Source: Nitrospira lenta (GTDB taxonomy: Bacteria; Nitrospirota; Nitrospiria; Nitrospirales; Nitrospiraceae). Taken from it: DNA of 64,000 nucleotides. The stretch spans positions 1-64,000 of the forward strand of contig CAMDPZ010000003.1 of the NCBI GenBank assembly GCA_945905765.1. The letters run 5' to 3'. This document shows positions 1,881 to 51,571 of the stretch, piece by piece (position 1 is the stretch's first letter; every line of letters starts with the position of its first letter). The translations under genes were made by a program, and so were the position numbers. The notes under the pieces are model-generated. The model made no database searches. It was not told where the DNA came from and was given only the letters and a program-made list of their open reading frames with translations.

Positions 1881-1999
1881 GGATGCTGAAAACGGCTTCC
1901 TGCGTCGTTCTCGCTTCGCTCAAGCCCTCAACGTACTACGAAAGTACGCCTCGGGCTCTCGCTCGCTGCGGCCTTGCAGGGAAACCGTTTTGAGCATCC
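1881..1999. repeat. 120-bp structured intergenic repeat, copy A
   Basis: The ends are near-perfect inverted repeats: GGATGCTGAAAACGG at the left pairs with CCGTTTTGAGCATCC at the right (14 of 15). The core shares GTTCTCGC, CCTCAACGTA, TACGCCTCGGG and GCTGCGGCCTTG with the other copies. An inner hairpin GTACT-acga-AGTAC lies in the middle. It begins 3 bp after the stop of the 1647-1877 gene. Confidence 0.8.
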
Positions 2000-2017
2000 T
2001 GCAAGCTGTTGCAGCAC

Positions 2018-2113
2018 CCGCCAGCATCATTTTCGCCTTGAAAGCATCCTCAATGTAGCTAGGGGTTTCGTTTCGCTCAAGGGCTCAACGTATGTAACGT
2101 ACGTTGAGCCTTT
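2018..2113. repeat. Degenerate second repeat copy ending in a stem-loop
   Basis: Positions 2018-2060 keep the left-hand repeat words (GCCAGCATC, TTCGCC, GCATCCTCAA-GTAGC) but the right half is lost. It runs into a perfect 11-bp stem, GGCTCAACGTA (2082-2092) against TACGTTGAGCC (2100-2110), followed by TTT. The stem may act as a terminator between the convergent genes at 1877 and 2196. Confidence 0.5.
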
Positions 2114-2154
2114 GGGCTATCTGAGACCTTGCTGTATCTGAGCAATGAAAATTT

Positions 2155-3543: not shown

Positions 3544-3663
3544 GGCTGCTGAAAAAGCCTGCCAGCATCGTTCTCGCCTTGAACGCATCCTCAACGTAGC
3601 CAGGGGCTTCGCCTCCGGTGTGTTCATCGGCTGCGGCCTTGCTGGCAGACTTTTTGAGCAGCC
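3544..3663. repeat. 120-bp structured intergenic repeat, copy B
   Basis: Ends are GGCTGCTGAAAAAG and CTTTTTGAGCAGCC, complementary except for one base, then CTGCCAGC pairing with GCTGGCAG inside. The core words TTCTCGCCTTG, CCTCAACGTAGCC and GGCTGCGGCCTTGCTGG match the other copies. One end lies 3 bp from the stop of the barstar-like gene. Confidence 0.8.
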
Positions 3664-3666
3664 TAT

Positions 3667-4194
3667 TTAGGTTCGCTTTGCGGGAGCTTTAGGTTTGGCC
3701 GGTTCCGCGCTGATCTCGCTCATCTCCCAGCGGGTCCGTTTTGATTTCTCCCGCTCCGATACGGCGAACAGCACGTGAAAGGGCGTTACGCGTTTCGCGC
3801 CCATGCCAGCCTGTCCGCTTCCCCAGGCCTCTCCCGCATCGCTCAAGACCTCCAGAAATGTTTCATACTCGTCTTCGTCGTCTGGCAACAGTTGCGCCGC
3901 ATCGGTGATCAGCAAAATATAGCCCTTGGCCGGCAGCCATTCCAGGTCGGCTAGACATTCTTCCAGGGCGTCCCAGTTATGGCCGAAGTAGTCCGGGAAA
4001 TCCAAGGCGCGGGCAAACTCGTTCAAGAGGCCAGCGGTAGTCTGACACTTGGCTCCCTTGATAATCTTCAACTTATAACCGTCCGGCACAGGTACGAGGG
4101 AGTCGGCTCGCTGTCCGGCTTTCACGACCAGTAAAGAAGACCAGGGAGCTTGGGTCGATTGCAGATAAGCAGGCAAGGTGAGTTTGGGCATCAT
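3667..4194 (-). CDS. Barstar-family ribonuclease inhibitor
   Basis: The signature LNEFARALDFPDYFGHNWDA and the following LEECLADLEWLPAKGYILLI are the barstar helix-2 and core strand, including the Asp/Trp residues that plug a barnase active site. It has 175 residues, about twice classical barstar, with an extra N-terminal segment (about 1-50) and a Lys/Pro/Ala-rich tail (KPKAPAKRT). There is no signal peptide, so it should act in the cytoplasm. Its ATG at 4194 overlaps the stop of the RNase gene (4191-4592) as ATGA, so the two are almost certainly co-translated. Binding to that RNase is inferred from family and context. Confidence 0.85.
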   Translation of the reverse strand: MMPKLTLPAYLQSTQAPWSSLLVVKAGQRADSLVPVPDGYKLKIIKGAKCQTTAGLLNEFARALDFPDYFGHNWDALEECLADLEWLPAKGYILLITDAAQLLPDDEDEYETFLEVLSDAGEAWGSGQAGMGAKRVTPFHVLFAVSEREKSKRTRWEMSEISAEPAKPKAPAKRT

Positions 4195-11578: not shown

Positions 11579-12513
11579 ATGAACCTTGATCAACGCCCCG
11601 ACGAGCTGCCGATTATCGTGGAGGAACCGTTCGAGGAGGAGTTCGAGGAGACGCCCTTTTCGAAATGGACCCTGCCTATTTGCCTTTTTGTGGCGACGGT
11701 CTTCACGACTTTGTGGGCCGGGGCCTATCAGGTCTACAACGGACCGATTGGCGGGCCGGGGGACTTTTTGCTGGAGCATCCAGATCTGCTCGGTCGCGGG
11801 GTTCCCTTCGCCTCCACGCTATTACTGATTCTGATGACCATGAGTGCGGGCATTATGTGCTTTCCCGAATCCATCGCGTGCCCGCGTCCTTACCTCTGTT
11901 CATTCCTGGTCCTCCCTATTTCATCGGTACGTTTGGTGCGATCATTCGTCTGCGAGGACCGATCTTGAACCGGCGCGCCCTCTTCGATATCGGCGTGGCC
12001 GGTCCGCTGGCAGGGTTTGTCGTGGCAGTGGTGGCCTTGGTCATAGGGCTGAATCTCTCAACGGTCGTTGATCGGACCGCGACCGTCGGATTACAGTTGG
12101 GCGAGCCGTTACTCTTGCAGCTTATCTCCTGGCTGGTTGTCGGGTCCCTTCCTCCTCAAGCAGACATTGTCTTGCATCCTATCGGGTTCGCCGCCTGGTT
12201 TGGGCTGTTTGTCACGTCGTTGAATCTCATTCCCATCGGCCAACTCGACGGAGGCCATGTGGCCTATGCCCTGTGGGGCTCACGTCAACGGACGTTGGCC
12301 TTTGCCATGGTGCCTTTGTTGATTGTGCTGGGACTCGCTGGCTGGCACGGCTGGCTTCTCTGGGCCTTTATGGCGGGGCTCTGGGGCTTCGGGCATCCGC
12401 CCGTGTGCGACCCTCACGTCCCACTAGGCCGGGGCCGAGTTGTGGTCGGATGGATTGCGCTGGCGGTGTTTGTGGTGACGTTTGCTCCCGTCCCCTTCTC
12501 CTTCCATCAATAG
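11579..12513 (+). pseudogene. Site-2 protease (M50) frameshifted in the HExxH motif
   Basis: The 5' part (11579-11838) encodes an acidic N-terminus and a first membrane helix (SKWTLPICLFVATVFTTLWA). The 3' part, in another frame, encodes GHYVLSRIHRVPASLPLF, PPYFIGTFGAIIRLRG, FDIGVAGPLAGF and the second zinc motif NLIPIGQLDGGHVAYAL, with several membrane helices. The switch falls at 11837-11841: reading ACC then CAT by reusing one C restores HECGH, the catalytic zinc motif. One missing base therefore breaks an otherwise intact rhomboid-like membrane protease. Either the copy is dead or the base is a sequence error; no classical slippery heptamer is seen. It starts 11 bp after the HTH-hydrolase gene. 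Confidence 0.82.
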
Positions 12514-12632
12514 GCTGCTGAAACAGACGCGCCAGCTTCGTTCTCGCATCGTTCAGACCCTCAACGTACCCCTGAGGGTACGCCTCGGGCCTTCACTCGC
12601 TGCGGCCTTGCTGGACGGCCTTTTTGAGCATC
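12513..12632. repeat. 120-bp structured intergenic repeat, copy C
   Basis: Ends GGCTGCTGAAACAG and CTTTTTGAGCATCC pair imperfectly. Inside, the inner hairpin is GTACCC-ctga-GGGTAC, and the words TTCGTTCTCGC, CCTCAACGTAC and GCTGCGGCCTTGCTGGAC are shared. The last base of the M50 stop codon is the first base of the repeat; the other end is 8 bp from the MoaD-like stop. Confidence 0.8.
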
Positions 12633-33292: not shown

Positions 33293-33334
33293 GCAAAAAC
33301 CTCCCTTTGACTCGAAGGGCTGTGTAGAAACATC

Positions 33335-33575
33335 GGTCAGCTGGGTTTCCTGACTTGCGGATCGTCGTTCCCCTGCGCCTTCCCATCTCACTGTGATGAG
33401 TGATGTGTGAAGAGTGATCGGTTCGAAATAGGCTGACCTACTCCCACCCATGACTCATCACTGATCACTCATCACCGTCTCGAGACAGTGGCTCTATGCA
33501 GGATCACTCCCCGCTTACAGTGGCGGCACCGTGATGGCTTTACACCATCTTCCCCGTCGCTGATGATGACTTTCT
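33335..33575 (-). promoter_or_regulatory. Cobalamin riboswitch upstream of btuB
   Basis: On the minus strand, in order: GACGGGGAAGATGGTGTAAA, GTGCCGCCACTGTAAGCGGG, GAGCCACTG, GGGAAGGCGCAGGGGA and GATCCGCAAGTCAGGAAACC, the conserved blocks of the class-I cobalamin aptamer. A large extra arm (about 33395-33480) made of GTGATGAGTGAT and ATCACTCATCAC words is inserted between the GCCACTG and GGGAAGGCGC blocks. Between aptamer and btuB, CCCTT and AAGGG can pair next to GGGAGG, which would hide the ribosome-binding site, so translational control is likely. Confidence 0.93.
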
Positions 33576-33644
33576 GGGCACTCCTCCTGATTGAACCGAC
33601 CGCGCCCTGACAAAACACGGGAGGACCGGGCATAATCCTTCCTG

Positions 33645-35695: not shown

Positions 35696-36696
35696 GGCGC
35701 GACGCTCGCCGCGAAGGCTTCAGGATGGAGAATGATCGCCAGCCGTTCCAACCCCTCGACGATCCGAGGCCCAGGACGGTTCAGAATATCGGAAGGGATC
35801 TGATGGAGCCGTCCCCGTTTCACCGCCGAGAGCGACGGCCATTGCTGCCAGAGCTGTTGATCGCCCGATGGCACTCCATCGGCCTTCCCAACGGGAAAGA
35901 CGATGATCTCGGGATCTTCCTTCAGGACCACTTCCATGTTGAGGCGTGGATAGGGCACGGAAGCCTGGCCCGCAATGTTGACGCCTCCCGCAAGCCCGAT
36001 CACGTGATGGATGAAGCTTCCAGGACCGACGGTAATCAGCGGCTGACTGTTGAGCACGTAGAGCAGGCGGACCCGCGGCAAGCCCTCCGTTTTGCTTCGG
36101 ATCGCCGCGATCCGTTCCTTCATCGCCTTCGCCACCGCGTCGGCCGAGGCAGAGCGATTTGCCATGCGTCCGATCAACTGAATGCGACTGGGAATCTCCT
36201 CGAACGACTCCGGGTCGACGATGAAGGTCGGAATTTTCAATTGCTCCAGCTTCACCAGAAGGTCGGCCCGGAGAAAGGAGCGAGGCGCCAAGACTAAATC
36301 CGGTTGCAACGAAACGATGACTTCAATGTTCGGATGGGTGTAGCCGACCTTAGGCTTCTGCTTGGCTTCCGGCGGATAGTCGCAAAACTCGGTGACGCCG
36401 ACGATCTGCGGCTCTAATCCGATGGCAAAAAGAATTTCCGTAATACTGGGCGCGAGGGAGACGATCCGCGTGGGTGCCTTCGCCAAATACAATTTACGGC
36501 CGAGATCGTCGACGAACGTCCGCGGGGTGATATTCGCCATGAAAGGCATCCCGGTCAGAATGCCTTGCTGTCGACGTGCCATGTTCGATCCCTCATCACC
36601 GGCAAAAACAGCGCCAACGTTCAACCACAGAAGACACAGAAAAACCCCGAATACCCAATTGCGCTCCCCGGCACGTTCAACACAGCTTTTCAGCAA
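35692..36696 (-). CDS. btuF: Vitamin B12-binding periplasmic protein
   Basis: A cobalamin/hemin-type solute-binding protein: RIVSLAPSITEILFAIGLEP, VGVTEFCDYPPEAKQKPKVG, VSLQPDLVLAPRSFLRADLL, GGVNIAGQASVPYPRLNMEV and RPGPRIVEGLERLAIILHPE. The signal peptide core is WVFGVFLCLLWLNVGAVFAG. No ATG precedes it: I take TTG 36696, but TTG 36786 is also in frame. The sequence between them is a copy of the 120-bp repeat, so the original start may have been replaced. The stop overlaps btuC by ATGA. Confidence 0.87.
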   Translation of the reverse strand: MLKSCVERAGERNWVFGVFLCLLWLNVGAVFAGDEGSNMARRQQGILTGMPFMANITPRTFVDDLGRKLYLAKAPTRIVSLAPSITEILFAIGLEPQIVGVTEFCDYPPEAKQKPKVGYTHPNIEVIVSLQPDLVLAPRSFLRADLLVKLEQLKIPTFIVDPESFEEIPSRIQLIGRMANRSASADAVAKAMKERIAAIRSKTEGLPRVRLLYVLNSQPLITVGPGSFIHHVIGLAGGVNIAGQASVPYPRLNMEVVLKEDPEIIVFPVGKADGVPSGDQQLWQQWPSLSAVKRGRLHQIPSDILNRPGPRIVEGLERLAIILHPEAFAASVAP

Positions 36697-36792
36697 GGCC
36701 GCAGCACGCGAACCGCCGAGACGTACTCGCTCCCGTACGTCGCAGGCGTTGCGCGAAGCGAGAACAAAGCGTGAAACCGTTTTCAACGTGCT
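36672..36792. repeat. 120-bp structured repeat, copy E, at the btuF start
   Basis: Ends GCACGTTCAACAC and GTTTTCAACGTGC are inverted; the inside, read on the minus strand, has TTGTTCTCGCTTCG, a GTAC-n8-GTAC inner hairpin, and GTGCTGCGGCCTTGCTGAAA. It covers the 5' end of the btuF frame and supplies both candidate TTG start codons. It is the only full copy at a gene start. Confidence 0.75.
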
Positions 36793-36835: not shown

Positions 36836-36895
36836 GCACCCGCAACTCATCCTCGCCAATTCCCCAGCCCACGAGGGAATCTCGGTCAACGATCC

Positions 36896-37132
36896 TGGGA
36901 GGTCTTCTGGCTCATGGTTCACTCTACTCCCCGCGCCTTCCCAGGATTGCGTGATGAGTGATGCGTTAGGGGTGATGGGTACAAGGCAGCTACGTAGCCG
37001 CGCGCGACTCATCACTCGTCACTCATCACCGATCACTGCATCCCAGTGGCATCTACGGGTTTCGTCCCCATTTACAGCGGCGGGACCGCGAGGGACTTGC
37101 ACCCTCTTCCCTGACCCAGGAATCACAATGTG
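36896..37132 (-). promoter_or_regulatory. Cobalamin riboswitch upstream of btuF
   Basis: Minus-strand blocks: AGGGAAGAGGGTGCAAGTCC, GGTCCCGCCGCTGTAAATGG, GATGCCACTGG, TGGGAAGGCGCGGGGAG and GAGCCAGAAGACC. A long arm again separates the GCCACTG and GGGAAGGCGC blocks (about 36955-37035), made of GTGATGAGTGA and ATCACTCATCAC words, as in the btuB riboswitch. The terminator at 36798-36835 completes a transcriptional switch. Confidence 0.93.
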
Positions 37133-37184
37133 CAGGCACTCTAGGAGAGGAGGGAAAAGTTGTCAAGATCAATAATGAACAGCC

Positions 37185-37577: not shown

Positions 37578-37769
37578 GTGGCCTTTACATGTGATCTCTG
37601 CAGCAAACGCCGCCAATCCGGCAATAACATCAGTCACGCCAATAACAAGACCAAGCGGATTTTCAAACCGAATCTCCAACCAGTCCGGGCTCTAATCGAT
37701 GGGCAGCCGAAGCGTATCAGGGTCTGCACCCGTTGCTTGCGCAGCGGCAAAGTCGAAAAAGCCGTTTAG
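37578..37769 (+). CDS. rpmB: Ribosomal protein bL28
   Basis: 63 residues: [40 protein letters not shown] and [18 protein letters not shown]. The two CxxC pairs make this a zinc-binding (C+) form. The start is GTG 37578 with AAGGAG eight bases upstream; the open frame from 37473 is not used. A full repeat copy begins 2 bp after the stop. Confidence 0.95.
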
Positions 37770-37771
37770 TC

Positions 37772-37893
37772 GCCTGTCCCAAAAGTCCGCCAGCTTCGTT
37801 CTCGCCTCGACAGCATCCTCAACGTAGCCTAAAGGCTACGCCTCCGGTGCCGTCATCGGCTGCGGCCTTGCTGGACAGCCTTTTGAAACAGGC
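37772..37893. repeat. 120-bp structured intergenic repeat, copy D
   Basis: The ends differ from the other copies yet still pair: GCCTGTCCCAAAAG against CTTTTGAAACAGGC. The inner hairpin is GTAGCC-taaa-GGCTAC. Shared words: TTCGTTCTCGCC, CATCCTCAACGTA, TACGCCTCCGG and GGCTGCGGCCTTGCTGGAC. It begins 2 bp after the rpmB stop, between convergent genes. Confidence 0.8.
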
Positions 37894-38405: not shown

Positions 38406-38453
38406 TTGGAGCGGGCGAGGGGATTTGAACCCCTGACAACTTGCTTGGGAAGC
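38406..38453. repeat. Left attachment site (attL), tRNA-Gly 3' fragment
   Basis: 48 bases identical to 45976-46023. They cover the encoded CCA, acceptor 3' strand, T-arm and anticodon arm up to the CCC anticodon region of tRNA-Gly; beyond it the sequence no longer forms a tRNA. Confidence 0.92.
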
Positions 38454-38613
38454 GCATTAGGTAATTTTCCCATGTGATACGCTACGACACAGTAGACCAC
38501 ATCATACACCGGCAGGCTCACGCCCATCAAGGGTTTGGGCCTGCGGTTGTGTCCTGCCGTTGCTTCCCCTCCCCTCCTGTGCTATCCCCTCATCGTGACT
38601 CTTTTCGGACCGG

Positions 38614-38634
38614 AACCGTGACTGGAACCGTGAC
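38614..38634 (+). other. Possible integrase arm-type sites, left
   Basis: AACCGTGAC occurs at 38614-38622 and again at 38626-38634. The 17-mer AACCGTGACNGGAACCG here also occurs near the right end at 45908-45924. Its place 160 bp inside attL fits an arm-binding site, but binding is not shown. The rest of 38454-38785 has no gene that I can support. Confidence 0.45.
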
Positions 38635-38785
38635 GCGTATGGTCTTCGCCATCAGGTGGTTATCCCCGTGCAGGACGTAGCATGCCTTCCAGACCAATAT
38701 GCAGCGGCAGTGCCCTTGCGATAGTCCTGCCCCACCCAAATTGGGCTTTCCTTCATCCCAACAGTAGAACGCTGCCGGAGGGGCT

Positions 38786-39478
38786 ATGACCACGAAGAAG
38801 AAAATTTTGGATAGTGAAATTGCCACAAGATTTAATATAGGCGATGAAGAATTTAACCCGTTTTCCTTAGAGGGACTGCCAGCCGAAGCGTGGAAAGGTT
38901 TTTGTGTTGTCGCGTGGATGCGATTAGAGCGCAGCAATCCCCGTTGGGCTGAAATAATACTTGATGAGTTTGGGGAGTTCGAGTGGACATGGTGCTCAAA
39001 GGCATTTAGTAAGAAGTACGGCGGAGGTGACGTTGGCGAGAAATGGATGAGGGAAGCATTCCAACACATGCTCCGGACGAAGCCGAAGAAAGGACAGAAA
39101 TCTCTCGATAGGCCTAGGCACCTTTTACAGTACTACACTCAATTCTTGCGTGACATCTCCAGACTCAGGGAAGACAATCCTGGACTTAGGAGTAAGCCGG
39201 GCCATGTGAGAAAAACGTTTTGGAAGGAGAAACTACAAGGCCTTCTCAATCGACATCCATACCATGATGAGACCCGCACGCATGCTCGGGTGACCGCTGA
39301 AATGATTGAAACAGCATGCTCAGCACCTCCTTCCGAAATAGCGTTGGACATGCTCAAACATCTCTACGGCATTAGCCCATCTCGACTGAAGAAAATTATC
39401 TTTCCGAAGCTCAGAACCAGCCCCCTTTCCCCCCTCGAATTATGGCGCGAAAAAATCTTTAAGTCTAACCGCAAGTAG
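38786..39478 (+). CDS. Hypothetical element protein (230 aa)
   Basis: Start ATG 38786 with CGGAGGGG upstream. Mixed helical content rich in Lys, Trp and Arg (CVVAWMRLERSNPRWAEIIL; CSKAFSKKYGGGDVGEKWMR; LDMLKHLYGISPSRLKKIIF). Lower GC than the host flanks, which suggests recent transfer. No family recognised, no signal peptide. It is the first gene from the left end; a DNA-binding or defence role is possible but unsupported. Confidence 0.6.
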   Translation: MTTKKKILDSEIATRFNIGDEEFNPFSLEGLPAEAWKGFCVVAWMRLERSNPRWAEIILDEFGEFEWTWCSKAFSKKYGGGDVGEKWMREAFQHMLRTKPKKGQKSLDRPRHLLQYYTQFLRDISRLREDNPGLRSKPGHVRKTFWKEKLQGLLNRHPYHDETRTHARVTAEMIETACSAPPSEIALDMLKHLYGISPSRLKKIIFPKLRTSPLSPLELWREKIFKSNRK

Positions 39479-39596
39479 CTCTCCCAGTTCCACCCATAAC
39501 GGGTCTATGGGTGGAATTGCAGATTTCATATTCCCTGTTACTTTCCATGCTCCAGCACACTGCATTGTGCAGCGTGGAACACGGGGAGGTATGACG

Positions 39597-39809
39597 ATGA
39601 GCGATCAGTGCCTTGTGAGTGTCGATGAAGCAGCACGACAGCTAGGAATGGCAAAGTCGAGCCTGTATCGAATGGCAGTGCTGAATCTGATTCCGTCTTA
39701 CAAAGTCGGGCAGAAGAAGCGCGGAGTAAGGTTTTCGATGCCTGAAGTCCTGGCGGCGCTACGGCGACCACTAGCTGACGAGTTGACGCAGCAGGCTGTG
39801 ACGAAATGA
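39597..39809 (+). CDS. AlpA/excisionase-like helix-turn-helix protein
   Basis: 70 residues from ATG 39597, with GGGAGGT seven bases upstream. The sequence LVSVDEAARQLGMAKSSLYR, MAVLNLIPSYKVGQKKRGVR, FSMPEVLAAL matches the MerR-like HTH_17 fold of excisionases and AlpA regulators. It probably directs excision or controls the element's genes. Its stop overlaps the start of the replication gene by ATGA. Confidence 0.8.
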   Translation: MSDQCLVSVDEAARQLGMAKSSLYRMAVLNLIPSYKVGQKKRGVRFSMPEVLAALRRPLADELTQQAVTK

Positions 39810-41656
39810 CAGGAACCCGACTGGAGGCCTTCCGCCAGGCAGCGGAGAGGGACGCGCTGGCATTGCCGGAGAACATTGTGCCGGGTCGAATCGTTCGATT
39901 CCCTGGTATCGGAAAATCTCACGGCAACAAATCCGGCTGGGCCTGGATATCGGAGGACGGACAAGGCGGTGCCTATGGCGATTGGGCCAGCGGGCTGTCG
40001 GAGACCTGGTACGCACAACACGATCACGCCATGACGGCAGCAGAGCGGGCCGCACACACGCGGCGAGTTGCTGAACTCCGGCGTATTCGCGAAGAGGAAG
40101 AAGCCAAGCAGCATGCGGAAGCCGCACAGAGGGCACAAGCGATCTTGGACGCGGCGCCAGCGGCACCGGCAGACCATCCCTACCTCACGAAAAAGCAGAT
40201 CCAACCTCACGGCCTGCGAGTCGATAACGAGAATCGTCTGATCGTGCCGGTGATGATCGGCGGCATCCTATGCAGCCTGCAATTCATCTCTCCAGATCCA
40301 GACGTCCCGAAGAAGTTCCTTCCTGGGGGGCAGGTCAAAGGCGGCTCCTGCCTTATCGGTGATCTGACCGAGGCCGATACCATTCTTGTATCCGAAGGCT
40401 TTGCGACCGGCGCGAGCTTGCACGAGGCCACTGGCCTTCCGGTCGTGGTGGCCTTTTCTGCGAACATCTTGACACTCGTAGCCGAACAACTGCGGCGACA
40501 GTATCCGACGGCCATGATCGTTCTATGCGGTGACAACGATCTGACCGGCACCGGGCAGCAAGCGGCCCAGAAGGCAGCGGAGGCGATCGGCGGCTTGACA
40601 TGCCTTCCCGAAACGGAGGGCCACGACTTTAACGATCTGCACACAAGGCAAGGCCTCGATGCCGTGAAAATGGCGATTGAGGGGGCAATAAAAAAGGCAC
40701 AGGAGAATCAGGCGATGATAGATGTAGACGAGGCTCCCCAGAAGGTGGCGCGCGATCTCTCGACGGCACTAGTCAGTTACACCGACCTCCTCTCGCTCGA
40801 AATTCCCGAACGCCCCCGCTACCTGCCGTGGCTCCCGGAGGGTGGCAACGTCATGGCCTATGGCCCTCGCGGCGTCGGCAAGACGTTCTTTCAACTGGCG
40901 ATTGCGACAAGTCTCACGACAGGCAAACCCCTCTGGAAGTGGGACTGTACCAAGCCCGTAGGGGTCCTCTATGTCGATGGCGAGATGCAGCTCGATGAGC
41001 TGAGGCAGCGGACTACGGCCTTGATGGAGACGCCTCCAATTGCGCCGTTGGAGTTTCTTACCGGGCAACTCGTCTATCAACGATGCGGCGGTAAGGACCT
41101 CATCTTGACCTCAGACGCCATGCGGCAAGAGGTGGTCAAGATCCTCGATGCTCGTCCTGAAATTCGCGTGATGATCCTCGACAATATCTCCTGTCTGTTC
41201 AGTGGGATTAACGAAGATTCAAAACAGGATTGGGAACCGATCAATGCCTGGCTGATTCGCCTACGGCACCGGGGGCTGGCGACCATCCTTGTCCACCATG
41301 CGGGGAAAGGCGGGCAGCAACGAGGAACCAGCGGACGAGAAGATTCATTAGATACGGTGATTCAACTGGCGAAGCCAACGGGCGGCGATGCGCGGGAAGG
41401 GTGTCACTTTGAATTAAGCTTCACCAAATGCCGAAGTGTCACGGGCGATGACGTAGGGCCGCTCGATGTGCGCCTCAATACCGTCAATGACCGGCTGCAA
41501 TGGTCCTGGGTACCAATGGAGGTGTCCACCTTAGATAAAGCCCGCAAGCTCGTCGCTGAAGGGGTGAATGGGCCTACCGAATTGAGCGAGGAATTAGGGA
41601 TCAATAAAGGCTATGCCTCACGGATCTTAAAGAAGCTCAGAGCGGAGGTTGCATGA
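39806..41656 (+). CDS. Toprim and RecA-like (RepA-type) replication protein
   Basis: 616 residues. N-terminal region (1-60) has GWAWISEDGQGGAYGDWASG, common in Toprim primase-helicases. Toprim domain about 185-290: TILVSEGFATGASLHEATGL and MIVLCGDNDLTGTG. RecA-like ATPase from about 340: MAYGPRGVGKTFFQLAIATS (Walker A), VLYVDGEMQLDEL, RVMILDNISCLFSGI (Walker B) and ILVHHAGKGGQQRGTSGRED, as in RepA/RSF1010-type hexameric helicases. A C-terminal winged helix (GPTELSEELGINKGYASRIL) ends the chain. It likely starts or drives replication of the excised element, next to the iteron cluster. Confidence 0.85.
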   Translation: MTGTRLEAFRQAAERDALALPENIVPGRIVRFPGIGKSHGNKSGWAWISEDGQGGAYGDWASGLSETWYAQHDHAMTAAERAAHTRRVAELRRIREEEEAKQHAEAAQRAQAILDAAPAAPADHPYLTKKQIQPHGLRVDNENRLIVPVMIGGILCSLQFISPDPDVPKKFLPGGQVKGGSCLIGDLTEADTILVSEGFATGASLHEATGLPVVVAFSANILTLVAEQLRRQYPTAMIVLCGDNDLTGTGQQAAQKAAEAIGGLTCLPETEGHDFNDLHTRQGLDAVKMAIEGAIKKAQENQAMIDVDEAPQKVARDLSTALVSYTDLLSLEIPERPRYLPWLPEGGNVMAYGPRGVGKTFFQLAIATSLTTGKPLWKWDCTKPVGVLYVDGEMQLDELRQRTTALMETPPIAPLEFLTGQLVYQRCGGKDLILTSDAMRQEVVKILDARPEIRVMILDNISCLFSGINEDSKQDWEPINAWLIRLRHRGLATILVHHAGKGGQQRGTSGREDSLDTVIQLAKPTGGDAREGCHFELSFTKCRSVTGDDVGPLDVRLNTVNDRLQWSWVPMEVSTLDKARKLVAEGVNGPTELSEELGINKGYASRILKKLRAEVA

Positions 41657-41846
41657 TTGGGTTGCCTGGGGGTTGCCTGCAAAGTTGCCGGTGCATCCAA
41701 AAGGTTGCCTGTTTCCCGTGTGCAGAATCTCACAAAGAATTTAGGCAACATTCGGAGAAACCATGTGCCAACACTGGAGTTGCAGGGTTGCTAACCGTGG
41801 CAACATTTCCAGGCCAGGCAACATTGAGTTGCCTAGAGAGTTGCCA
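41648..41846. repeat. Iteron-like GTTGCCT cluster, possible replication origin
   Basis: GTTGCCT occurs at 41661, 41672, 41704 and 41828 on the plus strand and at 41743 and 41816 on the minus strand. Near-matches GTTGCCG 41684, GTTGCCA 41840, GTTGCAG 41779, GTTGCTA 41787 and inverted TGGCAAC 41798 lie between them. A 7-mer of this kind is expected far less than once in 200 bp. It begins at the stop of the replication gene. Confidence 0.7.
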
Positions 41847-41864
41847 GCCAAAAGGGGGCGCACG

Positions 41865-42197
41865 ATGAGCTCGACCGCGGTAGGACATTGCCCAAACTGT
41901 GCCGCGATGATTAATCGCCACTGGCAGGAGTGCCTCGTCTGTCACACCAGCATCGCGCATACGACCGAGACAGGATGCACCGGCCTGGGCGGCTCCCCCT
42001 CCACGATTCAACACGGCTCCCTGATCGCCTGGACGCGAGCAGGGCAGGTGCAGGTCGGTACGGTGGATTTTATCTATGTCGATGCGGAGGGGGCGACGTG
42101 GGCCTTCACCGTTGGGAAGGACTGGTCGGCGCTCAATACCAAGTTCGTGCGGTTAGCGACGAATGAGGATTTGACGGACCAGGCTTCGACGCCGTAA
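41865..42197 (+). CDS. Zinc-ribbon hypothetical protein
   Basis: 110 residues from ATG 41865 with AAGGGGG upstream. A zinc ribbon (HCPNCAAMINRHWQECLVCH) is followed by a small beta-rich domain (SLIAWTRAGQVQVGTVDFIY; WAFTVGKDWSALNTKFVRLA). It follows the iteron cluster; a role in replication control is only suggested by position. Confidence 0.65.
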   Translation: MSSTAVGHCPNCAAMINRHWQECLVCHTSIAHTTETGCTGLGGSPSTIQHGSLIAWTRAGQVQVGTVDFIYVDAEGATWAFTVGKDWSALNTKFVRLATNEDLTDQASTP

Positions 42198-42612
42198 AGA
42201 AGGTGAGGGGCTGGGTACGATAACGTCCGGCATATCCTCTCAGCGGGTTATGGACCAGCCAAGAGAGCTAAGCCCGTGTGGCCCTCCTGACCTCTCGCAC
42301 CCCCTGTGGTCTGTCTAGTCCCCTCGCCTGGTGAGTCCGGGAGGTGCGTAGAGGGAGCTGTGCAGGGTGAAATCGTGAGAGGGCGTGGGTGACAGGTCGC
42401 GTACCCTCGCCGCTCATCATTACCGCCCTTACCGTGTTCCCCTCATGCCGAGGCATACCCAGGCCTCTCGATCCCACTCCCGCATACGACCTGAGATGCC
42501 TACGTTGCCGTAGGGACGCTCAAGTCTCTATCTTGTCACCGTACCCGTTCGGTGCTTGCGCCCTCATCGCACCCCGCCTACAATGAACCTTCAATTTCCC
42601 TGCGAGGCCCCT
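42198..42612 (+). other. 415-bp gap, no gene seen
   Basis: Contains short open frames without ribosome-binding sites or protein-like composition. It should hold the promoter of the lipoprotein gene at 42613. I see no clear hairpin or repeat. Confidence 0.35.
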
Positions 42613-43317
42613 ATGTACTGCCGTGCTCCCTTCCAAAGTCTACTATTCTGTTTTCTAATTCTCTCTCTTGTGGGGTGCGACCAGAATTCTCAACGGGAGG
42701 CACGCGAACTTCCAAAAGAGGGTCGGAAGGAAGCCGCGAAGGAGTTGGAAGAACGGAGAAATCAGGTGTTCATGGAATTCGAGAAAAAGTATAACGCAGA
42801 TGGCAGTTGGCAAGGGTCATTCAAGCGCAATCCCGTATGGACTATGGAAGTGCAGGATCGGCTGATTCCACCAGACGGACGCCCTATTCTATCAAGTGGG
42901 TCATTGTATGATGTGACGCGCAAGGGTGATGAGTACAGGCTTCACTTTCGGAAAGGGTATTTGCAAGGGACTCTTGAGAAATATAGATTGGGCGTTGTTG
43001 ATATAGATTTTGTCTTCAATTGTAGCTTGCCCGAAGACAAGAGAGCTGAAGCGAAGAGCTTTGGTGATCAAATCACTGCACGTACCATCGGGACGCTTCA
43101 CGACGACTATGTCTTTGTGGCCAAGATAAAAGCGGTAGAGCGACGCGACAAACTAATCGGAAAGGTCGCGGTTGATAATTTCCCGCACTTTATTGCCACG
43201 GGGGAATGCCTGGCGGTGAAATATATCGGTGAGAGCCAAAACGCCTCATCGAAGAGTTCCGTGCTCCATCGCCCAGGTGAGACCCCCGAGCAGTACCTCA
43301 ACCGAATAAACCATTGA
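42613..43317 (+). CDS. Element-encoded lipoprotein (hypothetical)
   Basis: 234 residues from ATG 42613. Signal peptide with lipobox LVGC (SLLFCFLILSLVGCDQN), then a charged helix (REARELPKEGRKEAAKELEE) and a beta-rich domain (MEVQDRLIPPDGRPILSSGS; YRLGVVDIDFVFNCSLPED; RTIGTLHDDYVFVAKIKAVE). It should be anchored in the envelope. Unknown family. Surface cargo of this kind on a satellite-sized element may affect phage entry or host envelope; inference. Confidence 0.68.
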   Translation: MYCRAPFQSLLFCFLILSLVGCDQNSQREARELPKEGRKEAAKELEERRNQVFMEFEKKYNADGSWQGSFKRNPVWTMEVQDRLIPPDGRPILSSGSLYDVTRKGDEYRLHFRKGYLQGTLEKYRLGVVDIDFVFNCSLPEDKRAEAKSFGDQITARTIGTLHDDYVFVAKIKAVERRDKLIGKVAVDNFPHFIATGECLAVKYIGESQNASSKSSVLHRPGETPEQYLNRINH

Positions 43318-43644
43318 ATTGGGAGGCAGACAGTTCGGGGTGGAGTTTCTGCAAGTGCCGGATGAGGAGCGAGTCCGCTTACAATAGTATCTATCGAAGT
43401 TTCCCGCGTCACAGAATTAGATGTGGGCATGGAACCCCACAAGGCCGACACGCCACCCCTAAGCATGACCGCACCACTCCCCCCACTCCCTCAACCTTGA
43501 CACCTTCCCACGGATAGCCTAGCTTTGCGGCGAAACGGCTGGCGACGGCGTATCAACCCTCTCACAATCCGACTAGTCTACCTGGGCATATTCCGTGGTT
43601 AGGCTAAATAATTTGCAGATCTGAGAAATATCAAAGGGGAAGAA
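43318..43644 (+). other. 327-bp gap, no gene seen
   Basis: Between the two lipoprotein genes. It becomes AT-rich near 43590-43630, where the promoter of the second lipoprotein is likely. No structured repeat is seen. Confidence 0.35.
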
Positions 43645-44031
43645 ATGAGCAAATTGATCACGTGTATTGCCGGTATGGCTTTGCTGCTCTTGGTCGGTTG
43701 TGCCCAACGGCACTATTTAAAAAGTAACTTGAATCAGATTGCGCTTGGCCAAACCAAAGGAACCGTCTTGTCAAAGTTTCCTGGGGAGCGGTCTGTATGG
43801 GGCGGGGGTGCCCCTGGCATGGAGATACGTGCCGCACACCGCTCCAGCACCGGTAAGCTGCTGGAGGTTGGCGAAGTGTGGCTCACGGACGGAGTAACAC
43901 CCACGGTTTTGCATTGGTTCATGTTTGAGGACGGAATCCTCGTGCAGTGGGGGCGTCCCGAAGACTGGAACAAAGCCGCAGCGCGGTACGACATTATCGT
44001 TAATCCATCGCCCGGCGTTCCCCAAAACTAA
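43645..44031 (+). CDS. Small lipoprotein (hypothetical)
   Basis: 128 residues, with AAAGGGGAAG ahead of ATG 43645. Lipobox LVGC follows a short signal (KLITCIAGMALLLLVGCAQR). The rest is NLNQIALGQTKGTVLSKFPG, then VGEVWLTDGVTPTVLHWFMF, EDGILVQWGRPEDWN. The G-T-x-x-x-V-L-x-x-F-P start resembles SmpA/OmlA-type folds, weakly. Envelope-anchored, role unknown. It is followed by about 300 bp (44032-44336) with C-rich runs and no supported gene. Confidence 0.68.
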   Translation: MSKLITCIAGMALLLLVGCAQRHYLKSNLNQIALGQTKGTVLSKFPGERSVWGGGAPGMEIRAAHRSSTGKLLEVGEVWLTDGVTPTVLHWFMFEDGILVQWGRPEDWNKAAARYDIIVNPSPGVPQN

Positions 44032-44336
44032 CAGTGGACTTGGCAGATTGATACGAACATTTCGTCTCGACGCGCACGAAAGGGCCAAGTTTTAGAAATC
44101 CCCCAAAACTCGTGCGCCGGGTGAAGGTCTAGACGCACATCTCGCCTTGCCTGTTTTTCCCCCTCCCCCCCCATGTTATTTTTGCCGGAGGTGACGAGCG
44201 CGTAAGCGAGGTCACGGTTCTATCCACAGTTCTGAATCTGACACAGCCACACTCCCTCATCATGCGGGAGTGGCGAGACACAGCACTAGCAGCAAGGCGT
44301 AGACGGTTGGGCGGACAGTCTGCGACCTCAGCATGA

Positions 44337-44534
44337 TCACTTCCCCTTCGGCAGACTCAAGGTAATCCCCTTACGCTCCAATTCCTTCAGGTGAGTTTCG
44401 AGCACAGTCAGGATGTAGTCTTTCATCGGGGTCCGGTGAAGGGATGCGGCGACTTTCAACTTCTCAGCCACGTCAAGGGGAAGGTCGCGGAGGAGGAAAT
44501 CGCGGGTGGTCTGATTCGTTTTCGGCTTCGTCAT
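44337..44534 (-). CDS. Small ribbon-helix-helix-like protein
   Basis: 65 residues from ATG 44534: RDFLLRDLPLDVAEKLKVAA, LHRTPMKDYILTVLETHLKE. The strand RDFLLRDLP followed by two helices matches Arc/FitA-type ribbon-helix-helix DNA-binding proteins. Divergent from the second small regulator at 44628, with a palindromic promoter between them. Confidence 0.68.
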   Translation of the reverse strand: MTKPKTNQTTRDFLLRDLPLDVAEKLKVAASLHRTPMKDYILTVLETHLKELERKGITLSLPKGK

Positions 44535-44561
44535 AGGCCGGGAGTGTAGCAGAGCGTCCAC

Positions 44562-44612
44562 TTGACATCAAATGATATATAGGCATATCATGATATCATA
44601 TAGTATCAATGA
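44562..44612 (+). promoter_or_regulatory. Promoter with overlapping palindromic operator
   Basis: TTGACA (44562-44567) and TATCAT (44586-44591), 18 bp apart, look like a sigma-70 promoter towards the integrase. The words ATGATAT (44572, 44590) and ATATCAT (44585, 44593) alternate across it, forming the palindrome ATATCATGATAT at 44585-44596 over the -10 box. This is a likely operator for the small flanking regulators. Confidence 0.6.
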
Positions 44613-44627
44613 GAGGAGGTGACGGGG

Positions 44628-44783
44628 ATGAAGATGATTCGGTTATTGATCCAAGTGCCGGAGCCGGTCAAGGCGAGGTTGGACGGCTTGCGAGAGCAGG
44701 GCACCACGGCCAGCGGGTTTATTCGGTACTTGCTGGAGGAACATTTTAAGCAGGCCCCCGTGATGGGCCGGAAAGGACGGTGA
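44628..44783 (+). CDS. Small ribbon-helix-helix-like protein upstream of integrase
   Basis: 51 residues from ATG 44628 with a strong AGGAGGTGA site: MKMIRLLIQVPEPVKARLDG, LREQGTTASGFIRYLLEEHF, ending GRKGR. The strand LLIQVPEPVKARLDGLR and the two-helix remainder are the ribbon-helix-helix plan. Only 3 bp separate it from the integrase gene, so it is co-transcribed and may repress or modulate integrase. Confidence 0.7.
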   Translation: MKMIRLLIQVPEPVKARLDGLREQGTTASGFIRYLLEEHFKQAPVMGRKGR

Positions 44784-44786
44784 GCG

Positions 44787-45998
44787 ATGGCGCGAGCAGG
44801 AAGAAAGGATCGGGGCTTGCTGGCGAGGAAAGATTCGACCGGCAAGACGGTATGGCATGTGCGGCTCTATCACGACGGGAAGGAACGGCGGTTCGGGGCT
44901 TTCAATAACAAGACGGAAGCCCGAGACTTTTACGAGAAGGCGAAACAGGAACAGAAGCAAGGGCGCTTCTTTCCCGAACGCTATCGGCACGGCGGGAGAG
45001 AGGCCGCTGCGGCGGTGATTGCGAGCTATCTGCTGACCCTCCCGACCAGTGGCAAGACGCCTTCGACCATCGCCGTGGAGAAGTACTATGGGCAATGGTG
45101 GACTGATCGCCTGATTGGGAAGGCCCTGCACGCCGTGACCCCTGCCCTGCTTGACCAGGCGATGGCAGACTTGAGCACGGCAAAGAAAACCCCTCAAACC
45201 ATCCTGCATTACATGAAGTTTCTCCGGCATGTATTCCGATGGGCCATCGGGAGAGGGGTGATTGAGAAAAGCCCCTTTGCCAGCGTGAAGCTCCCCACGG
45301 TGCGAGCGGGGAAAACACGATTCCTCTCGATTGAGGAGGAGGCGCAGCTGTGCAAGGCGGTAGGTCAACCCTATGACCGTTGGATTCGGCTGGCGATTCT
45401 CACGGGCATGAGAAAGTCTGAGCAGTTTGGCTTGCGATGGGCCGACATTGACCTCGAACGGGGCTTGATTACCCTCCCCCACACCAAGTCGGGAACCGTC
45501 CAATATGTGCACCTGACAGAAGAAGCCAAGGCGATCCTGGGCGGCCTCATCGCTGGCAATACGTCGGTCTGGGTGTTTCCGAGTGAGAACCCCGACACAC
45601 ACCTGGACCATCATAACTTCTACTATCGGGTCTATCAGCCCGCCATTGTGACCGCGAAGCTCCCTGGCGTGACCTGGCACACCTTGCGTCATACGTTCGC
45701 CTCACGGCTTGCGATGAACGGCCAAGCCCCTAGCACCATCGCGGCCTTGCTACGGCACAGTGGAACGGACTTAGTGGCGCGGTATGCCCACCTCAGCCCT
45801 ACCCACCTGCAAGGGGCGCTGGAGGGAGTCTCAGGGTTTGGGAAGGGAACGATCAAGAAGACGCAGATCGTGACGGAATCGAGGGGCGAGGAGGAGAATT
45901 CAAACCCAACCGTGACGGGAACCGGAACCGAGCAGGAGAGGCCGCACGATGAAGAGACACAAGCGGTTGAAAGTATTGGAGCGGGCGAGGGGATTTGA
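44787..45998 (+). CDS. Tyrosine-recombinase integrase
   Basis: 403 residues. N-terminal arm-binding region (DSTGKTVWHVRLYHDGKERR), core-binding domain (about 75-175, KTPSTIAVEKYYGQWWTDRL), and catalytic domain with the Arg in LTGMRKSEQFGLRWADIDL, HTLRHTFASRL, the later His/Trp-position pair in LLRHSGTDLVARYAHLS and the Tyr in ARYAHLS. It catalyses insertion at tRNA-Gly. Its last codons and stop lie inside the right attachment core (45976-46023), so the protein end is written by the tRNA sequence; after excision the reading frame end would depend on the joined attP. Confidence 0.94.
   Translation: MARAGRKDRGLLARKDSTGKTVWHVRLYHDGKERRFGAFNNKTEARDFYEKAKQEQKQGRFFPERYRHGGREAAAAVIASYLLTLPTSGKTPSTIAVEKYYGQWWTDRLIGKALHAVTPALLDQAMADLSTAKKTPQTILHYMKFLRHVFRWAIGRGVIEKSPFASVKLPTVRAGKTRFLSIEEEAQLCKAVGQPYDRWIRLAILTGMRKSEQFGLRWADIDLERGLITLPHTKSGTVQYVHLTEEAKAILGGLIAGNTSVWVFPSENPDTHLDHHNFYYRVYQPAIVTAKLPGVTWHTLRHTFASRLAMNGQAPSTIAALLRHSGTDLVARYAHLSPTHLQGALEGVSGFGKGTIKKTQIVTESRGEEENSNPTVTGTGTEQERPHDEETQAVESIGAGEGI
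45908..45924 (+). other. Possible integrase arm-type site, right
   Basis: AACCGTGACGGGAACCG, which differs by one base from 38614-38630. It lies within the integrase C-terminal codons, 52 bp inside the right attachment core. Confidence 0.4.
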
Positions 45999-46023
45999 AC
46001 CCCTGACAACTTGCTTGGGAAGC
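45976..46023. repeat. Right attachment site (attR), within tRNA-Gly
   Basis: 48 bases identical to 38406-38453. Here they are part of the complete tRNA-Gly, so this is the junction where integration preserved the tRNA. Confidence 0.92.
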
Positions 46024-46051
46024 AAGGACTCTACCACTGAGCTACGCCCGC
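45977..46051 (-). tRNA. tRNA-Gly(CCC)
   Basis: 75 bases with encoded CCA. The acceptor stem is GCGGGCG/CGCCCGC with discriminator T, the D-arm includes GCTCAGTGGTAGAG, the anticodon stem CTTGC/GCAAG holds the loop TTCCCAA (anticodon CCC), and the T-arm is AGGGGTTCAAATCCCCT. The 3' half doubles as the attachment core of the element. Downstream, the element replaces the original terminator. Confidence 0.95.
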
Positions 46052-50368: not shown

Positions 50369-50487
50369 GGATGCTCAAAAAGTCTGTCAGCAAGGCCGCA
50401 GGCGAGTCGAAACCGGAGGCGTGCCCTCGGGGTACGTTGAGGATTTCGACGAGCCGAGCACGCCGCTGGCGGACTTTTTCAGCATCC
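50369..50487. repeat. 120-bp structured intergenic repeat, copy F
   Basis: Ends GGATGCTCAAAAAG and CTTTTTCAGCATCC are complementary apart from one base. Inside: GTCAGCAAGGCCGCAG, GCGTGCCCTCGGGGTACG and TTGAGGATTTCGACGAG, i.e. the family sequence in reverse orientation. It stops 2 bp from the mtnA stop codon. Confidence 0.8.
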
Positions 50488-50489
50488 TG

Positions 50490-51521
50490 TTAGGAAGAGA
50501 ATTGCGCCGCCAGATCTTGGGGGCGAAACACGCCCCGTTCGGTGATGATGCCGGTGATCAATTCAGCCGGCGTCACGTCGAAGGCTGGATTGTAGACCGC
50601 GACTCCGGCTGGAGCGATCGCGTGGCTGCCGTGGATGGTCGTGACCTCTAACGGGTTCCGCTCTTCGATCGGAATCTCCGCTCCTGTTTTCGTCTTCAAA
50701 TCGATCGTGGAATAGGGAGCCGCCACGTAAAAGGGAATCCCGTGAGCCTTCGCCAGCACGGCAACCGAATAGGTCCCGATTTTATTCGCCACATCCCCGT
50801 TGGCGGCGATCCGGTCAGCTCCCACGACACAGAGTTGAATCTTCCCCTGTCTCATGAGCGCGCCAGCCATATTGTCCGTGATGAGCGTCACGGGAATCTT
50901 GTCCTGCATCAACTCCCAGGCCGTGAGCCTCGCTCCCTGCAGCACCGGTCTGGTCTCATCTGCGATAACCTGAATCTTCTTCCCCTGCTCCCAAGCTGCG
51001 CGAATCACGCCGAGCGCCGTGCCGTAACCAGCCGTCGCCAATGCGCCGGCATTGCAATGGGTCAGGACTGTTTGGCCGCTGGCAATAAGCTTCGCGCCGT
51101 GCTGCCCCATCGCCTTGCAAAGCGCGATGTCCTCATCCAGGATCCGTTGCGACTCCTCCACGAGCAGCCGCTTAATGTCCGATACAGGCCGTTCCCGTAA
51201 TTCCGATAACTTTCGCTTCATCCGCTCTATCGCCCAGAAGAGATTGACGGCGGTCGGCCTGGTCGCAGCCAGGCAGTCGCAGATCTCAAGCATCGCATTC
51301 ATAAATTCATCGTAAGATACTGCTTTAATTGATTGCGCGCCGAGCGCCACGCCCATCGCTGCAGTCACGCCAATCGCAGGCGCCCCGCGAACAACCAGCT
51401 CCTTGATCGCCCGAGCCACCGTCAGATAGTCCCGGCAATCCAGGAACACAACCTTCCCAGGAAGCTGACTTTGATCGAGCAATCGAACTGCTCCGTCTTT
51501 CCATTCAACAGTAGGAACCAT
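50490..51521 (-). CDS. mtnA: S-methyl-5-thioribose-1-phosphate isomerase
   Basis: 343 residues from ATG 51521, after which [17 protein letters not shown] is the usual start; the open frame upstream to 51629 is not protein-like. Seen: [20 protein letters not shown], the catalytic Cys in [20 protein letters not shown], and the Asp in [20 protein letters not shown]. Methionine salvage (or a related eIF2B-like sugar isomerase). No other mtn gene is nearby. Confidence 0.94.
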
Positions 51522-51571
51522 AGAAGAATCTTGTAGCGGGAACTGCGACGCAGTGCAAGGGGCTAATACTT

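What the first reader, a model, noticed from the sequence alone, without database searches (positions are those of the whole stretch)
1881..1999. Family of 120-bp structured repeats with compensatory changes
Six full copies (1881-1999, 3544-3663, 12513-12632, 36672-36792, 37772-37893, 50369-50487), all 119-122 bp, share inverted ends and a core. The inner hairpin differs between copies but stays paired: GTACT/AGTAC, GTACCC/GGGTAC, GTAGCC/GGCTAC. The outer ends also change together (GGATGCT..., GGCTGCT..., GCCTGTC...). Such covariation points to selection on a fold, in RNA or DNA, and not only on sequence. I do not recognise it as a described family.
Basis: seen in the sequence. Interest (0 to 1): 0.72.

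Follow-up and report, generated by a model that had tools for sequence, protein, structure and literature searches.

The report
Mobile hairpin repeat at gene ends
This is a ~120-base folded DNA repeat present in about 100 copies in this Nitrospira-type genome, probably spread by IS5-type transposases that land on the sequence of stop codons, with a strongly preserved hairpin core that also turns up in unrelated phyla and whose job is still unknown.

Summary
All six copies are real (two on the minus strand); the genome holds ~101. Covariation is strong: 35 of 40 pairs change on both sides (shuffled 21±1.7; slid 14-19). No Rfam family matches. The repeat is nearly universal in the family, and its core recurs in Methylomirabilota/Rokubacteria, an Olavius delta endosymbiont and a Gemmatimonadetes bin with unrelated outer stems.

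Its left end CAGG(A/C)TGCTGAAAAA sits exactly on a YTAR tetranucleotide (41/101 copies, 0.24 expected), so it often abuts a stop codon (34 copies exactly 2 nt behind one). A 205-bp subset has a distal right end identical to that of local IS5-family elements, some with matching YTAR flanks; a relative shows an empty CTAG site. Elements stay at orthologous sites while their cores swap as blocks.

Unresolved: the right end of the short form, which folded molecule is selected, and the core's function. Verdict: new variant of a known kind (MITE / palindromic intergenic repeat).

The parts
1881..1999 (+). Copy 1 (119 bp), 3 nt behind the TAG stop codon (1875-1877) of a 77-aa-class small ORF
   Evidence: model R1 124.8 bits; ORF end
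2017..2133 (+). Decayed partial copy directly downstream of copy 1
   Evidence: BLAST 67 bits at 2017-2070; R1 32.3 bits at 2057-2133
3544..3663 (+). Copy 2 (120 bp); its 3' side lies 3 nt from the TAA stop of a minus-strand gene (3667-4194)
   Evidence: R1 110.9 bits; shared with relative G077
12513..12632 (+). Copy 3 (120 bp), overlapping the TAG stop of the gene ending at 12513; orthologous copies in most species of the genus examined
   Evidence: R1 120.1 bits; orthologous site comparison
36672..36792 (-). Copy 4 (121 bp), most diverged of the six, downstream of a cobalamin riboswitch on the same strand
   Evidence: R1 85.7 bits; riboswitch
37772..37893 (+). Copy 5 (122 bp), type D core; YTAR-type TTAG at 37766-37769
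   Evidence: R1 105.1 bits; flank sequence
50369..50487 (-). Copy 6 (119 bp), 2 nt behind the TAA stop (part of YTAR = CTAA, 50490-50493) of the minus-strand gene 50490-51629
   Evidence: R1 112.5 bits
50292..50309 (-). Distal right end of copy 6 (long form): GAGTTTTTCCGCAGCCGC, followed by CTGA
   Evidence: 2 mismatches to the IS5-type end

Best explanation
The repeat is a miniature, non-autonomous transposon family (MITE-like) built around a conserved hairpin core. Shown: ~101 copies; a left end CAGG(A/C)TGCTGAAAAAG placed precisely on YTAR; a 205-bp subset with a second end identical to that of IS5-family elements in the same bacterial family, some members with YTAR on both sides; an empty CTAG site in a relative; presence/absence differences between related species. 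Inferred: IS5-type (DUF772/DDE) transposases act on these ends and insert them at YTAR. Stop codons TAG and TAA preceded by C or T are YTAR sites where insertion leaves the protein intact, so copies accumulate directly behind stop codons. The ~70-nt core keeps its secondary structure by selection on the folded element, helped by gene conversion between copies. My best guess for the core's effect after insertion is a strong hairpin at the 3' end of the host mRNA (termination, stability or translation) that makes sense-oriented insertions tolerable or useful; that last step is not shown.
For: YTAR before CAGG in 41/101 copies at exactly one offset, 0.24 expected. Nine copies with a distal right end and 0 control matches; flanks CTAG/CTAG (L023) and CTAA/CTAA (L037). 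L025: TTAG...CTAG around the element, a single CTAG in the empty site of G077. IS5-family ISs in genus and family with ends CAGGCTG[C/T][G/T]GA[A/C]AAAC and CTAG/CTAG or TTAG/TTAG flanks, transposases over the NF033581 cut-off, 18/18 identity to the long-form right end. 22 of 37 sites shared with G077, the rest empty or different. Structure. Core exchange at fixed outer arms.
Against: About 90% of copies lack a recognisable right end or a YTAR at the right edge. The left end matches the IS ends at only 15-16 of 18 bases. No IS5-type transposase was found in the own draft genome or in G077, and hardly any DDE_Tnp_1 in the Methylomirabilota/Rokubacteria and Olavius genomes, where the outer stems differ. 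MITE identity does not by itself explain a core conserved across phyla. Movement was inferred from comparison, not watched.
Confidence: 0.7

Rival explanations
1. A host-maintained 3'-UTR RNA element (bidirectional terminator, mRNA 3'-end stabiliser or translation brake) kept at gene ends by selection; mobility is old or incidental.
For: Exact stop-codon abutment in 34 copies, sense-only 44 against antisense-only 16 (p=4e-4), long retention at the copy-3 site across the genus, replacement there by a different palindrome in three species, a GC stem next to CTTTTT, about 2-fold more stop sites than YTAR availability predicts (p=0.04). E. coli REPs within 15 nt of a stop codon are reported to affect translation (cited in PMC12306157).
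Against: YTAR explains most of the stop-codon position, including copies not at a called stop. The reduced relative G296 lost or truncated many copies without a replacement hairpin. A.C cells exceed G.T cells in 26 of 31 pairs, suggesting tolerance on the strand opposite the mRNA. The T run is paired within the stem and the simple terminator scan did not flag copies 1-3.
Confidence: 0.25
2. Covariation without selection: arm-to-arm correction of DNA palindromes and gene conversion between copies keep the arms complementary.
For: Block exchange of cores between copies is visible; shuffles do not model it, and cells count sequences, not events.
Against: Invariant unpaired motifs (CGTTCTCG, TCAA/CCTC, CTGCGGCCTT) persist across phyla with unrelated outer stems; arm correction would not keep unpaired loops. 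P2 covaries across phyla, 8/8 pairs.
Confidence: 0.15
3. REP/REPIN-type element mobilised by a Y1 (RAYT) transposase.
For: Palindromic, intergenic, high copy, conserved TAG at the foot of the hairpin, as GTAG in REPs (PMC3733652).
Against: No PF01797 match in the own genome, G077, G153, G315, G161 and other copy-rich genomes; YTAR duplications are not expected of Y1 enzymes.
Confidence: 0.03
4. attC-like recombination sites of an integron-type system.
For: Size, imperfect palindrome, position directly behind stop codons, several contigs with copies in one orientation.
Against: No RYYYAAC/GTTRRRY core sites in the flank logos; copies follow diverse scattered genes, not cassette arrays; sequence more conserved than is usual for attC (general knowledge).
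Confidence: 0.02

Closest known systems
MITEs derived from IS5-family insertion sequences (YTAR target)
   Same: Short, non-coding, high copy, IS5-type ends, YTAR on the left in 41 copies and on both sides in some long-form copies.
   Different: Most of the length is a conserved, covarying hairpin core found across phyla with other outer stems; most copies lack a recognised right end.
REP / REPIN elements
   Same: Palindromic repeats at gene 3' ends with a TAG-type tag beside the hairpin.
   Different: Single 120-nt hairpin with an internal conserved core; no Y1 transposase in copy-rich genomes; YTAR flanks.
ERIC (126-127 bp intergenic repeat of enterobacteria) and NEMIS/Correia elements (from general knowledge, not compared here)
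   Same: Similar size, imperfect palindrome, intergenic, ~100 copies, transcribed with neighbours in known cases.
   Different: No sequence comparison was made; here the position is fixed on YTAR/stop codons and the core crosses phyla.
attC sites of integrons
   Same: Structure-conserved hairpins behind stop codons.
   Different: No core recombination sites, no cassette arrays, strong sequence conservation.

Membership tests
MITE | Short, non-coding, many dispersed copies | tested here: met
   ~101 copies of ~120 bp
MITE | Terminal inverted repeats shared with an autonomous element | tested here: met
   Long form: right end 18/18 identical to IS5-family ends, left end 15-16/18. The short form has a palindromic outer stem, its true right end is unknown
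MITE | Target-site duplication on both sides | tested here: inconclusive
   Clear for L023 (CTAG/CTAG), L037 (CTAA/CTAA) and L025 against its empty site; absent at the right edge of most short forms
MITE | Presence/absence polymorphism with empty sites | tested here: met
   L025 and L100 against G077; L036, L010 and L003 absent in both G077 and G296
MITE | Mobilised in trans by the partner transposase | not testable with these tools
   Needs a transposition assay
IS5 family (for the partner elements) | Transposase of the family | tested here: met
   L431 and L424 over the NF033581 cut-off; L438 just below it (127 of 140), better on IS1182 but below that cut-off too
IS5 family (for the partner elements) | 4-bp YTAR target duplication | tested here: met
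   CTAG/CTAG or TTAG/TTAG in L424, L430-L432, L438, L441, L484, L486, L496
REP/REPIN | Associated Y1 transposase (RAYT) | tested here: not met
   No PF01797 match in own genome or several copy-rich relatives
attC site | R'' RYYYAAC and R' GTTRRRY core sites | tested here: not met
   Flank logos show YYTAGCA and TGCnGG
Described RNA family (Rfam 15) | Match at or above the curated score | tested here: not met
   No match at gathering score or at E up to 1
Intrinsic terminator | GC hairpin followed by an unpaired T run | tested here: inconclusive
   GC stem then TTTTT is present, but the T run is itself paired in the outer stem; the simple scan did not flag copies 1-3

The most novel reading that the evidence does not exclude
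The ~70-nt core is a distinct, widely spread structured nucleic-acid element (RNA or folded DNA) that spreads between phyla independently of its outer stem, borrows whatever terminal repeats the host's transposons offer, and is selected at stop codons in sense orientation because it does something to the mRNA end or to translation termination.
Probability: 0.22. Interest if true: 0.8.

Novelty: new variant of a known kind. Interest (0 to 1): 0.52.

Why it matters
The copy-rich genomes include the nitrite oxidiser Candidatus Nitrospira defluvii (complete genome, 116 matches), and I found no description of the repeat. It decorates the 3' ends of dozens of genes, so it bears on annotation, transcript-end mapping and possibly expression in an important group of bacteria. 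It gives a clear case in which a transposon's target motif (YTAR) coincides with stop codons, so insertions leave proteins whole. The cross-phylum core with exchangeable ends is a concrete target for testing whether mobile repeats carry a selected structured module.

Tried and rejected
REP/REPIN with a Y1 transposase: rejected, PF01797 is absent in copy-rich genomes. attC sites: considered because of size and stop-codon abutment, rejected on flank logos and context. Known RNA family: no Rfam match at gathering score or at E up to 1. Phage or plasmid carriage: no match. Stop-codon recoding (PYLIS/SECIS-like): considered because of TAG plus hairpin, rejected because TAA and TGA also occur there and the stop is the native gene end in relatives. 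TAG as purely a stop-codon signal: rejected, YTAR also precedes copies that are not at a called stop. Literature searches for the sequence and for Nitrospira palindromic repeats or MITEs gave no description; one paper lists counts for N. moscoviensis palindromes.

Full report
OBSERVATION. The six copies are present at the given coordinates; the fourth and sixth lie on the minus strand. A BLAST of one copy against the whole genome gave 40 matches. A covariance model (R1; 119 positions, 40 pairs) found about 101 full-length copies in 2.33 Mb.

STRUCTURE. Each copy is one long hairpin. P1 is an outer stem of ~21 pairs with a conserved G.G mismatch. J1 is an internal loop with near-invariant CGTTCTCG on the left and CTGCGGCCTT on the right. 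A short P1b follows. P2 is highly variable (types such as GTTCAGACCC, TCGAAATCC/CCGGTTTCGA, CGAAGAGGC/GCCTCTTCG, GAACGCATCC/CGGTGCGTTC). A near-invariant internal loop TCAA/CCTC leads to P3, CGTA(nnn)/(nnn)TACG. On 105 distinct rows 35 of 40 pairs have changes on both sides (shuffled 21.0±1.7), 443 cells have double changes (shuffled 107±10) and 90% of cells are paired; slid registers reach only 31-43% paired. That alignment leans towards the model it was fitted to, but the independent MAFFT alignment A3 gives the same picture (88.8% paired; 31 of 40 pairs). Single copies fold with z-scores of about -5 to -10.

DISTRIBUTION. In a sample of 296 genomes of the phylum, 132 have matches: nearly all genomes of the family and most of the order, fading further out. 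A scan of named genomes places it in Nitrospira, including Ca. N. defluvii (116 matches), and in Rokubacteria/Methylomirabilota (29, 10 and 4 matches per genome), the Olavius Delta 4 endosymbiont (35) and a Gemmatimonadetes bin (4). In those the outer stem is wholly different while the core is kept. Core pairing covaries strongly across them: P2 8/8 pairs with double changes, score 0.549 against 0.144±0.022 shuffled. Bins can be contaminated; the Gemmatimonadetes case is the weakest.

STOP CODONS. Sixty-eight of 101 copies have a coding frame (my own codon-score caller) ending on their 5' side on the same strand; in 34 the stop codon ends exactly two bases before the hairpin (TAG 24, TAA 8, TGA 2). 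This departs from stop usage in the window. Antisense gene ends on the other side show no peak. Sense-only against antisense-only is 44:16, p=4e-4. In relatives that lack an intact element the stop codon is at the same place, so it is the gene's own.

YTAR AND IS5. The four bases before CAGG are YTAR in 41 of 101 copies (0.24 expected), at that offset only, including 14 copies that are not at a called stop. Nine copies carry, ending 75-79 bases downstream of the hairpin, a second end close to GAGTTTTTCCGCAGCCTG (0 control matches). Their flanks include CTAG/CTAG and CTAA/CTAA. For L025 the 90%-identical relative G077 has a single CTAG and no element. IS5-family elements in the genus and family have ends such as CAGGCTGCGGAAAAAC or CAGGCTGTTGACAAAC with CTAG/CTAG or TTAG/TTAG flanks. 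Two of three tested proteins score 278.9 and 249 bits against NF033581 (IS5 family, cut-off 140). The long-form right end is identical to one of these IS ends over 18 bases. Hence the reading: a MITE-like family using IS5-type ends and the YTAR target; stop codons Y-TAG and Y-TAA are harmless YTAR sites. In the window, YTAR stop sites number 14 and other non-coding YTAR sites 61, so the share of copies at stops (34 of 101) is about twice what availability predicts (p=0.04). A mild extra preference or selection remains.

DYNAMICS. Of 37 sites comparable with G077, 22 are shared, 9 are short or empty there and 6 hold other sequence. At shared sites the interior sometimes differs in type while the outer arms are the same (L099: type B here, type D in G077). 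At the copy-3 site 16 species carry alignable elements, many with the same outer arms and different cores. Three species carry another palindromic repeat at that same place. This indicates block exchange of cores among copies plus gain and loss.

WHAT IS NOT SETTLED. The right end of the short form (flank consensus TGCnGG..., no YTAR). The molecule under selection: A.C cells exceed G.T cells in 26 of 31 pairs that differ, suggesting wobble tolerance on the strand opposite the mRNA, whereas the sense bias suggests the mRNA; a DNA cruciform would involve both. No autonomous partner was found in the own draft genome, and almost no DDE_Tnp_1 in the other-phylum genomes tested. The role of the core is unknown; a 3'-end hairpin effect is my best guess, not a result.

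NOVELTY. Nothing matching was found in Rfam or in searches of the open literature. ISfinder and subscription literature could not be searched. I rate it a new variant of a known kind.

Noticed in passing
window 33322-33615 and 36880-37135 (minus strand): Two cobalamin riboswitches each carry a ~92-nt palindromic TGATGAGTGATG-type insert in the same aptamer loop: another palindromic repeat family parked inside riboswitches.
   Followed up: partly
window 38406-46051: A perfect 48-bp direct repeat of a tRNA 3' end bounds a ~7.6-kb integrative element with a tyrosine integrase (44787-45998 +) and a Toprim/AAA primase-helicase-like protein (39806-41656 +).
   Followed up: partly
L081, L090, L091 (copy-3 orthologous site): A different ~130-bp palindromic repeat (GCGTGACGCGCGAGA... 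type) sits at the same place behind the same gene's stop codon in three species.
   Followed up: no
L077, L079, L087, L092: A further inverted repeat (TTCTCACCCGCCCA...TGGGCGGGTGAGAA) is nested inside copies of the element.
   Followed up: no
L105 site in G077 (segment C7/C13/C3/C4 set) and L006 site in G296: Another structured repeat (GGGATGGCC...CCTCGTTGGACGCGCGCAG) lies inside remnants of the element.
   Followed up: no
L015 and L118: Two near-identical gene ends (nadA-like by eye), each followed by the element, with downstream flanks 96% identical: a duplicated segment.
   Followed up: no
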